Below are positions 57,586 through 59,714 of a stretch of DNA of 64,000 nucleotides, piece by piece. This stretch comes from Sphingobacterium yanglingense (lineage in GTDB: Bacteria; Bacteroidota; Bacteroidia; Sphingobacteriales; Sphingobacteriaceae), in assembly GCF_004363245.1 (NCBI RefSeq), contig NZ_SNYV01000011.1, positions 806,001 to 870,000 on the forward strand, written 5' to 3'. Every line of letters begins with the position of its first letter. The stretch's first letter is position 1. The position numbers and the translations under genes are program-made. The notes under the pieces are model-generated. The model was not told the origin of the DNA, did not search any database, and worked only from the letters and a program-made list of their open reading frames with translations.

Positions 57586-58433
57586 CTTATCCGATTCAAA
57601 AATTTCAAGACTGGTGCACACAGCAATGGGTCATCTTGTGGGGGAGAAAGATAGAACCTGAACCTCACTCGTGGTTAATGGGGGCTTTTGGTGACCTCAA
57701 TGGCATAGGTGAACAGTTTATCAATGAATTGGTTGAAAAGGAGAACCTTGTTATTGAAAGGGATAGTGTCTCGAGAGGACTGATACCTTCTATCACAGCA
57801 TTTGCCCTTGGCCCTGATGATCTATCCAGACTGTCCAGAAAAGTCATTGCCTTCTACGAAAACACGTCTGATTACAACCTTCGATTTGGATTACAATGGA
57901 GTCCTTTATTTAAGGTATTTGGCAAATTGGTGAATATGCTATTCAGCAGTAGAATCAATCAGCTGAATATCCCAACGGAAAATATAGCGGATAAGGAGTC
58001 GTTGACGAGTGAGATAATCGCGCTTCGGAATCCAAATACGAATGAGGTGGTATATACGATTTGGCTCAGGAAATTTAAAACCAGTGGTAAGGTTATTTAT
58101 TCGGGGCTATATGGCACGTGTAAGCTGCCCTCTGGGGAAACTTGTTTAAAAGCTACCTTTCCCCTACCCAAGGGCAATGCTACGGTGATCATGTCTATCG
58201 GAGTCGGGGTAGATGGAGAACTGATACTGAACTCTTCGGGACGGAAATTTGGAGATGCAGGTTTCTATTTCTTATTACAGGATCGTAAAGGTGCGTACTG
58301 GAGCCAGTATATCCGCTCATTCCGTGATAGATTGACGGTATGTGAAAGGGAGAATAGCCTGACCGCTGAACAGGTGCTGACGCTTTGGAATCAGACCGTT
58401 GTTCGTTTCAACTATACTATGAGAATGAAGTAA
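57576..58433 (+). CDS. Uncharacterised protein coupled to CrtA-like gene
   Basis: 285 residues from ATG 57576 (MGLAYPIQKFQDWCTQQWVI), overlapping the preceding stop. The frame also opens at 57552, inside the upstream gene. Residues about 1-140 look helical (GDLNGIGEQFINELVEKENL, DDLSRLSRKVIAFYENTSDY). The C-terminal half is rich in beta strands (SGLYGTCKLPSGETCLKATF, ATVIMSIGVGVDGELILNSS). No family recognised. The composition suggests a two-domain soluble protein. Confidence 0.68.
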   Translation: MGLAYPIQKFQDWCTQQWVILWGRKIEPEPHSWLMGAFGDLNGIGEQFINELVEKENLVIERDSVSRGLIPSITAFALGPDDLSRLSRKVIAFYENTSDYNLRFGLQWSPLFKVFGKLVNMLFSSRINQLNIPTENIADKESLTSEIIALRNPNTNEVVYTIWLRKFKTSGKVIYSGLYGTCKLPSGETCLKATFPLPKGNATVIMSIGVGVDGELILNSSGRKFGDAGFYFLLQDRKGAYWSQYIRSFRDRLTVCERENSLTAEQVLTLWNQTVVRFNYTMRMK

Positions 58434-58448
58434 AGTGGCACTTAAAAA

Positions 58449-58532
58449 GACAAAATCAGACATATTACCTGTATGGGAATTGAACTTATATCGATATGCA
58501 TAATTCGGGTTAATAATTGGTTAGTTAACGTC
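58449..58532 (+). repeat. Degenerate dispersed element, copy R5
   Basis: Keeps TTGAACTTATATCGATATGC, a TAATTCGG box and AATAATTGGTTAGTTA but has lost the hairpin and T run (it continues CGTCTCTAAAGCTC). It lies between convergent genes. Confidence 0.58.
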
Positions 58533-58541
58533 TCTAAAGCT

Positions 58542-59639
58542 CTATAATACTAATTCATATCGTATAGACCGTCCCGCCCCAAGTAAGCTTAAGGCTCCTA
58601 TTTCGCCTAAGTGCTGTAAATCTCGGGTAGCAGTAGCTTTAGAAGCTTTTGTTATGGCAACATACTTTTTAGCAGTCATACCTCCTTCAAAACCTTCTAC
58701 TCCCGATTCAAACATTCTATTGATAGCTTTCAGTTCTCTTTCATTTAACTGTGCTTTAAATTTGTCGAAGAATTTGACTTTCTTAACGACAAACTCAACC
58801 AGCTGCTTTGCTTCAACCTGTGCTTCTAAAATGACCTTTGCGAAATATTCAATCCAGTCGGAAATCTCGAGAGTGGACTGCGCAGATTTCAGCGCATTAT
58901 AATACTGGGTCTTATTTTTTTCAATGACCTTAGAAATTGATAATAAAACGGGACTTTGCAGGGTATACGACAAAGCATATTCGGCCAAAGCTCTGCCGAT
59001 GCGGCCGTTTCCATCTTCGAACGGATGAATACTTTCAAAATACAGATGCGTAATCGCTGATTTTACCAAAGACTGACTCACTTTGTCCGGTATTGAAAAA
59101 TCAGTATTATTAAACCATTCTACAAAGTTGACCATTTCTTCCGCTACTCTAGCTGAAGGGGGAGCTTCATAATGTACTATTTCTTTACCATGGGCGCCTG
59201 AGATAACCTGCATAGGCTCATGTCCAGCGCGCCATTGACCAGCTTGTATTCGGGTAAATGATTCCATCAACATCTTGTGCCACTCCAAAATCATTGTTAT
59301 GGATAATTCCTTTTTATAAGCCTGCCTTACATTGGTCATCAACTGGGCTATACCAGCTACGCGTATATCACGCACTTTGGTATCATCCTTTAAACCTAGA
59401 TTGCGCTTGATAGATGACATCACATCTACTCGGCTCATATACTCGCCTTCTATCTCAGAGGTTTTTATTGCTTCAGCGATTAGAATCTCAATAATGGTTT
59501 CTTGCTTTAAATCATCATTTAAAGCAGTTACTAGACCAGTGACCTGTCCAAGTTCTTCTGCAAAAGAAACTGCAATAGCTTGAATATTTTCAAGTGTATA
59601 GCTAAACGCAGGCCAGGCTTTATATTGCCAATTATACAT
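58542..59639 (-). CDS. Fic-family protein with DUF4172 and C-terminal winged helix
   Basis: 365 residues from ATG 59639 (MYNWQYKAWPAFSY). The frame opens at a TTG at 59666, which would cover an operator half-site. N-terminal DUF4172 contains TSEIEGE (about residue 62), the (S/T)xxxE(G/N) inhibitory motif. The Fic core has HPFEDGNGRIGRA (about 206), with catalytic His and nucleotide-binding residues intact, so it should transfer AMP to a protein. The C-terminal about 60 residues (AKKYVAITKASKATATRDLQ) form a winged-helix DNA-binding domain. Three upstream TGAGCCGATTA copies suggest direct autoregulation. Confidence 0.9.
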   Translation of the reverse strand: MYNWQYKAWPAFSYTLENIQAIAVSFAEELGQVTGLVTALNDDLKQETIIEILIAEAIKTSEIEGEYMSRVDVMSSIKRNLGLKDDTKVRDIRVAGIAQLMTNVRQAYKKELSITMILEWHKMLMESFTRIQAGQWRAGHEPMQVISGAHGKEIVHYEAPPSARVAEEMVNFVEWFNNTDFSIPDKVSQSLVKSAITHLYFESIHPFEDGNGRIGRALAEYALSYTLQSPVLLSISKVIEKNKTQYYNALKSAQSTLEISDWIEYFAKVILEAQVEAKQLVEFVVKKVKFFDKFKAQLNERELKAINRMFESGVEGFEGGMTAKKYVAITKASKATATRDLQHLGEIGALSLLGAGRSIRYELVL

Positions 59640-59641
59640 AA

Positions 59642-59714
59642 TGAGCCGATTAAAAGATTTATTCAACTCAAATATAGCTAAAATTTGAGCCGATTAGCAA
59701 AATTAATCGGCTCA
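59642..59714. promoter_or_regulatory. Triple TGAGCCGATTA operator-like site upstream of fic
   Basis: TGAGCCGATTA occurs at 59642-59652 and 59686-59696 and inverted (TAATCGGCTCA) at 59704-59714. The last two form a perfect 11-bp-arm inverted repeat with a 7-bp spacer. All lie within 75 bp upstream of the fic start. Such an arrangement fits binding by a dimer, possibly through the winged helix of the Fic protein itself. Confidence 0.7.

What the first reader, a model, noticed from the sequence alone, without database searches (positions are those of the whole stretch)
59642..59714. Three TGAGCCGATTA sites in front of a Fic gene with its own winged helix
Two direct and one inverted 11-bp copies within 73 bp, two forming a perfect inverted repeat, lie just before the start codon. 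A Fic enzyme that also carries a DNA-binding domain could sense its own modification state at this operator.
Basis: partly seen in the sequence, partly recalled or inferred. Interest (0 to 1): 0.58.

Follow-up and report, generated by a model that had tools for sequence, protein, structure and literature searches.

The report
Self-control switch of a Fic enzyme
A bacterial enzyme that tags other proteins with AMP appears to switch off its own gene by binding four copies of a short DNA word laid over its promoter and start codon, and the same layout, with the word changing in step with the enzyme's DNA-reading part, is found in relatives across several bacterial phyla.

Summary
The 73 bp at 59642-59714 hold four 11-bp half-sites, not three (the fourth, TGAGTTGAATA, is degenerate). 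They form two inverted repeats with 7-bp spacers, centres 44 bp apart, covering a Bacteroidota-type -7 box and reaching within 2 bp of the ATG of a DUF4172-Fic-winged-helix gene. Of 131 relatives at 38.5% identity or more, 126 carry four such half-sites (5240 shuffles: 45 as high); of 66 more distant ones, 42 do, with another word and centres about one helical turn closer. The word follows the protein: residue 334 at the start of the recognition helix matches half-site position 5 (84 of 84, one change on the tree), and wing residue 357 matches position 10 (41 of 42; then 14 of 15 later, distinct loci). I read it as an autoregulatory operator bound by the protein's own winged helix, two dimers per operator. 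The kind is known: Yersinia CccR represses itself through palindromes. The four-site layout and its conservation I found in no paper I searched. DNA switching the enzyme is more plausible. Nothing here is a binding test.

The parts
59704..59714 (-). half-site a, TGAGCCGATTA (distal inverted repeat, left arm on the gene strand)
   Evidence: exact match
59686..59696 (+). half-site b, inverted copy (distal inverted repeat, right arm)
   Evidence: exact match; spacer to a is 7 bp, as in 117 of 126 family-A loci
59669..59676 (-). TATATTTG, fits the Bacteroidota -7 promoter box TAnnTTTG (consensus recalled); its last two bases are the first two of half-site c
   Evidence: TAnnTTTG starts 6 bp before c in 66 of 78 Bacteroidota family-A loci, and in at most 3 at any other offset from -40 to +29
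   Evidence: the same degenerate form stands in orthologues L008 and L035 (TGAGTTGAATG in L007 and L036)
59642..59652 (+). half-site d, inverted copy, 2 bp upstream of the ATG
   Evidence: exact match; in relatives d ends at the A of the ATG (+1) in 85 of 128
58542..59639 (-). DUF4172-Fic-winged-helix protein, 365 aa; inhibitory motif TSEIEG (60-65), Fic motif HPFEDGNGRIGR (205-216), recognition helix 334-346, wing 350-363
   Evidence: PADLOC SoFic model E 1.1e-52

Best explanation
The 73-bp stretch is the autoregulatory operator of the DUF4172-Fic-winged-helix gene behind it. The protein dimerises through its N-terminal helix, so that its two C-terminal winged helices read one inverted repeat (11-7-11 bp). 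Two dimers sit on the same face of the DNA, centres 44 bp apart, covering the -7 box and the start of the gene, and so block transcription. Expression stays low and rises when the protein is diluted, for example after transfer to a new cell, or is drawn off. Shown here by sequence: the sites, their fixed spacing, their overlap with the promoter box and start codon, their conservation, and their change together with recognition-helix and wing residues. Inferred: binding, repression, two dimers. By analogy with CbFic2 only: DNA-bound dimers are in the deAMPylating, harmless state.
For: (1) Four-half-site layout: score at least 44 in 126 of 131 family-A promoters and 42 of 66 family-B promoters, 0 of 197 random windows from the same loci, 45 of 5240 and 27 of 2640 dinucleotide shuffles. 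(2) Spacing: inverted-repeat spacer 7 in 117 of 126 (first) and 116 of 126 (second) family-A loci; centre distance 43.5-45 in family A and 32.5-34.5 in family B, about one helical turn apart (unrestricted scan). (3) TAnnTTTG at one fixed offset to half-site c in 66 of 78 Bacteroidota loci. (4) Covariation: residue 334 K with C5 (77), R with G5 (6), N with C5 (1); wing residue 357 R/K against G/other at position 10 in 41 of 42, best of 470 column splits, phi 0.95 against 0.75 for the next; 14 of 15 distinct loci fetched after the rule was seen. Residues 334 and 357 fall at the start of the recognition helix and in the wing loop of the model. (5) The closest experimentally studied kin behave so: CccR (PMC9755527, passages).
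Against: No binding or expression data exist for this protein. Plain mutual information over all columns did not single out the winged helix (4 of the top 25 columns, 18% expected), because lineage dominates. On the tree the helix/position-5 link is one single change, and the wing/position-10 link gives only 3 supported independent pairs (3 to 0), too few for a test. 24 of 66 family-B promoters scored below 44. CccR's published operator (two 10-bp half-sites, N26 apart) has a different spacing. Half-site c of the window is degenerate.
Confidence: 0.85

Rival explanations
1. Modification-state sensor: auto-AMPylation changes the winged helix's grip on the operator, so the gene responds to the enzyme's own AMP state.
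For: The same chain holds an AMP transferase with an intact Fic motif and a winged helix. CbFic2 does auto-AMPylate.
Against: In CbFic2 automodification did not change DNA affinity more than ATP itself did (random DNA). CccR H192A still restores repression.
Confidence: 0.06
2. The operator is read by another host regulator, not by the Fic protein's own winged helix.
For: No direct binding data. Similar single inverted repeats stand elsewhere in genus genomes, some beside genes without any Fic.
Against: The sites accompany the gene through at least seven phyla and onto plasmids, and the word changes with residues of the Fic protein's own helix and wing.
Confidence: 0.07
3. The inverted repeats act as RNA hairpins (terminator or attenuator before the start codon), not as DNA sites.
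For: Perfect stems. Hairpins with the same letters stand 3' of other genes in the genus.
Against: The -7 box lies between the two repeats, so the distal one is upstream of the transcript and part of c lies at or before the start of transcription (inferred). Two repeats in fixed helical phase are unexplained by RNA.
Confidence: 0.05
4. The operator is also an enzyme switch: operator-bound dimers are held as deAMPylases, free monomers are AMPylases, so the gene's own promoter DNA serves as its antitoxin.
For: CbFic2: DNA of 20 bp or more dimerises it, suppresses auto-AMPylation and stimulates target deAMPylation. The inhibitory motif is kept in 196 of 198 relatives. No same-strand partner gene was seen next to the window gene.
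Against: One or two operators per cell cannot hold many molecules. In the SoFic defence paper dimers were required for toxicity and a protein antitoxin, AS1, was found (abstract).
Confidence: 0.2

Closest known systems
CccR of Yersinia pseudotuberculosis (PMC9755527)
   Same: Fic domain plus C-terminal HTH; represses its own gene by binding inverted half-sites near the promoter boxes; dimer needed (passages)
   Different: Operator AGATAATCAT-N26-ATGATAATCT, two half-sites, other spacing; it is a T6SS effector, for which nothing was tested here
CbFic2 of Coxiella burnetii (PMC10628234, PDB 8cil)
   Same: Closest solved relative: Z 37.9, rmsd 2.2 over 350 residues, 34% identity; same DUF4172-Fic-wHTH order and TSxIEG motif; binds DNA through the wHTH
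   Different: Studied with random DNA as a host-directed effector; the authors leave open whether it reads a specific sequence; its promoter was not looked at here
SoFic (Shewanella oneidensis, 3eqx/3zcn; E. coli Sofic defence, PMC12249575)
   Same: Same domain order and fold (Z about 25); PADLOC SoFic model matches
   Different: Far below the NCBIfam SoFic equivalog cut-off (66 of 550 bits); 'HTH', 'DNA-binding' and 'autoregulat' do not occur in the main text of the Sofic paper
Toxin-antitoxin operators with several inverted repeats (AbiE, PMC7319586; title and abstract start only)
   Same: A module represses its own promoter through several inverted repeats
   Different: There a separate antitoxin binds; here enzyme and DNA reader are one protein

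Membership tests
CccR-type autorepressing Fic-HTH regulators | Fic domain and C-terminal wHTH in one chain | tested here: met
CccR-type autorepressing Fic-HTH regulators | inverted half-sites at the gene's own promoter | tested here: met
   four half-sites instead of CccR's two
CccR-type autorepressing Fic-HTH regulators | same operator spacing (N26) | tested here: not met
   spacers are 7, 15 and 7
CccR-type autorepressing Fic-HTH regulators | binding of and repression from the own promoter | not testable with these tools
   needs EMSA or footprint and a reporter
Class II Fic AMP transferases | HxFx(D/E)GNGRxxR and an N-terminal (S/T)xxxE(G/N) inhibitory helix | tested here: met
   HPFEDGNGRIGR and TSEIEG in the window protein; inhibitory motif in 196 of 198 relatives, the two others have incomplete N-termini (the Fic motif itself was a selection criterion)
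SoFic equivalog (NCBIfam NF046030) | score of at least 550 bits | tested here: not met
   66.1 bits
SoFic-type anti-phage defence | PADLOC SoFic model | tested here: met
   PDLC03963 E 1.1e-52; a model match, not a defence test
SoFic-type anti-phage defence | protection against phage | not testable with these tools
   needs plaque assays

The most novel reading that the evidence does not exclude
A whole class of Fic enzymes across several phyla are one-gene modules in which the gene's own promoter DNA is both operator and allosteric partner: two dimers in helical phase on four half-sites are locked as deAMPylases and shut the gene, and loss of the operator or dilution on plasmid or phage entry frees AMPylating monomers. 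The half-site code (position 5 read by residue 334, position 10 by wing residue 357) evolves as an insulating specificity between coexisting copies.
Probability: 0.15. Interest if true: 0.75.

Novelty: new variant of a known kind. Interest (0 to 1): 0.5.

Why it matters
CbFic2, the nearest solved relative, was studied with random DNA, whether it reads a specific site was left open, and its co-crystals with DNA failed. The Sofic defence work calls the C-terminal domain crucial for toxicity without treating it as a DNA reader in the text I searched. A sequence-defined operator of fixed geometry, with two residue-to-base rules that can be swapped, makes three questions directly testable: does this enzyme class bind specific DNA, does that DNA switch AMPylation to deAMPylation, and is expression set by dilution on plasmid or phage entry.

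Tried and rejected
Plain mutual information between all protein columns and half-site positions did not enrich the winged helix: 4 of the top 25 columns, with 18% of columns in the domain. Lineage swamps it, so I used within-class scans and a tree. The tree test had too few independent pairs: 3 supported, 3 to 0 for wing R/K; 2 to 1 for the alternative label aromatic/His at the next residue. The column scan for position 5 left residue 334 out by its frequency filter (6 of 84 rows); the 84-of-84 count is from the direct table of the same call.

Other Fic classes (L030-L034) were meant as negative controls and did not serve. Four of the five score 51-57 with other, AT-rich words, above their 25 own shuffles (maximum 46-49); L030 scores 41, within its shuffles. 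So the score of 44 is not safe for very AT-rich promoters, and other Fic-wHTH classes may have operators too.

Rows dropped before counts: of L005-L221, 14 loci gave no kept protein: L020, L028, L029 (fragments), L037, L052, L083 (no open frame passing my filter; L037 and L052 have in-frame stops, and L083 appears to be the same locus as L037), L030-L034 (other classes), and L171, L175, L177 (Fic motif HPYEDGNGR or HPLEDGNGR, missed by my pattern). These last three have the operator (63, 66, 66) but are not in the counts. L116 has too little upstream DNA. Family-A promoters scoring below 44 number 5 of 131. In the preset scan the lowest were L111, L123, L161, L114 and L110; L123 and L161 have no clear start codon, and in L111 both repeats stand further upstream of the chosen ATG.

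preset the middle spacer by class (13-17 or 3-7); the unrestricted scan is, where 15 is the commonest value in A (81 of 123 scoring 48 or more) and 4-7 in B (28 of 35; 21 in 5, 12 and 2 in one each).

Full report
What is there. The gene at 58542-59639 (minus strand) encodes 365 residues with DUF4172 (2-83) and Fic (112-223). An AlphaFold model from 33 sequences (mean pLDDT 93) ends in a winged helix: recognition helix 334-346, wing strands 350-353 and 360-363. The closest solved chain is CbFic2 (8cil, Z 37.9, rmsd 2.2, 350 residues, 34% identity), followed by other Fic proteins with Z about 24-27, among them SoFic. The protein keeps the class II inhibitory motif TSEIEG and the Fic motif HPFEDGNGRIGR. 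The PADLOC SoFic model matches (E 1.1e-52), but the NCBIfam SoFic equivalog does not (66 of 550 bits).

The sites. On the gene strand, 59714 to 59642 reads a-7-b-15-c-7-d: TGAGCCGATTA, TAATCGGCTCA, TGAGTTGAATA, TAATCGGCTCA. TATATTTG (59676-59669) fits the Bacteroidota -7 box (consensus recalled) and overlaps c. Half-site d ends 2 bp before the ATG. The score of 57 of 66 stands alone in the 64-kb window (next 37) and 0 of 2000 shuffles reach it. The genome has four exact 11-mers, three of them here. A degenerate single-repeat pattern finds the two repeats here without mismatch, and elsewhere one place with one mismatch and two with two.

Relatives. I collected 198 distinct homologues; 197 had enough upstream DNA. 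I scored any four 11-mers in the order +,-,+,-. Of 131 homologues at 38.5% identity or more (family A), 126 scored at least 44; of 66 below (family B), 42 did; of 197 random windows from the same loci, none (maximum 42). Dinucleotide shuffles gave 45 of 5240 and 27 of 2640; 126 of 131 and 44 of 66 loci beat all 40 of their own shuffles.

Geometry. In family A the inner spacers are 7 bp in 117 and 116 of 126 loci and the middle one is 15 (100) or 16 (26), so the centres of the two inverted repeats lie 43.5-45 bp apart. In family B the word changes to TGCGGAGAATA and the centres lie 32.5-34.5 bp apart (middle spacer preset by class; unrestricted scan). The difference is about one helical turn, as expected if two dimers must face the same side. 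In 85 of 128 family-A loci half-site d ends on the A of the ATG. TAnnTTTG begins exactly 6 bp before c in 66 of 78 Bacteroidota loci, and in no more than 3 at any other offset tested; it is absent there in 35 of 35 Pseudomonadota. So the operator stays while promoter type changes.

Protein and DNA change together. Three words occur in family A. TGAGCC goes with K334 (77 loci; one further N), TGAGGC with R334 (6 loci): 84 of 84, but one change on the tree. In the TGAGnTATA group (42 loci) position 10 is G with wing residue R357 and not G with K357 in 41 of 42; of 470 column-residue splits this is the best (phi 0.95; next 0.75). I then scored 22 later loci of this group: 11 from viral contigs and 11 of the 16 plasmid loci I chose to fetch out of the listings. 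Fifteen are distinct at 90% identity; 14 follow the rule, and L322 does not. Residue 334 opens the recognition helix and 357 lies in the wing loop, where a winged helix touches DNA (general knowledge). Against: whole-protein mutual information shows no enrichment of the domain, and the tree gives too few independent pairs for a test.

Other sites. In 45 of 93 genus genomes a single repeat (one mismatch allowed) is found. I read 29 such places that did not lie at the Fic genes already known. Two proved to be further intact Fic genes, 4 hold Fic fragments, 4 keep a second repeat at the right distance with no Fic match, 3 more do so weakly, 9 lie within 40 bp of another gene's 3' end like terminators, 6 are unclear, and one (L230) was seen only, 3' of another gene. 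In the window's genome the one near-match (one mismatch) outside the promoter is of the terminator-like sort. Autoregulation is therefore the main role I infer, but further targets are not excluded.

Mechanism. CccR, a Fic-HTH protein, represses its own promoter, needs its dimer to do so, and its catalytic mutant still restores repression (PMC9755527, passages). CbFic2 binds DNA through its winged helix, dimerises on DNA of 20 bp or more, loses auto-AMPylation and gains deAMPylation; its DNA was random and a specific site was left open (PMC10628234, abstract, section 15 part 1 and passages). I therefore take the 73 bp as an autoregulatory operator bound by two dimers. Binding and repression are inferred; the enzyme-switch step is analogy. 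The modification-sensing idea has published evidence against it in both relatives.

Novelty. Paper searches gave CccR as the only autorepressing Fic-HTH protein that I noticed in the listings; none that I saw describes this operator in Bacteroidota or a four-half-site layout. Subscription papers are mostly not in that library. A 2026 review (PMC12894286, passages) describes CccR and CbFic2 in the same terms. I rate it a new variant of a known kind.

Noticed in passing
L031, L033, L034 (also L032), upstream of another Fic + C-terminal wHTH class: Repeated AT-rich half-sites (TTTTAAATAAG and the like) stand before these genes too, scoring 51-57 against a shuffle maximum of 46-49, so own operators may be general among Fic-wHTH classes.
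   Followed up: partly
L226, L331, L338, L339: Four-half-site operators, or a second repeat at the right distance, with no Fic-like match nearby: possible ghost operators after loss of the gene.
   Followed up: partly
L224 (G000:C1:1196478-1196506), L228, L229, L333-L336, L340, L349: Terminator-like hairpins just 3' of other genes have the operator's letters and 7-base loop; more often than I would expect by chance, and unexplained.
   Followed up: partly
plasmid records: DUF4172-Fic-wHTH genes are common on plasmids: 173 and 245 records, 98 predicted conjugative in each list, with Agrobacterium, Rhizobium and Pantoea the most frequent names.
   Followed up: no
L191, L188, L197, L200 (family B): Some family-B promoters seem to carry five or six half-sites, the last running into the start codon (read by eye).
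   Followed up: no
window 58433-58542: No same-strand small gene follows the Fic gene, unlike Sofic with its downstream antitoxin AS1.
   Followed up: partly
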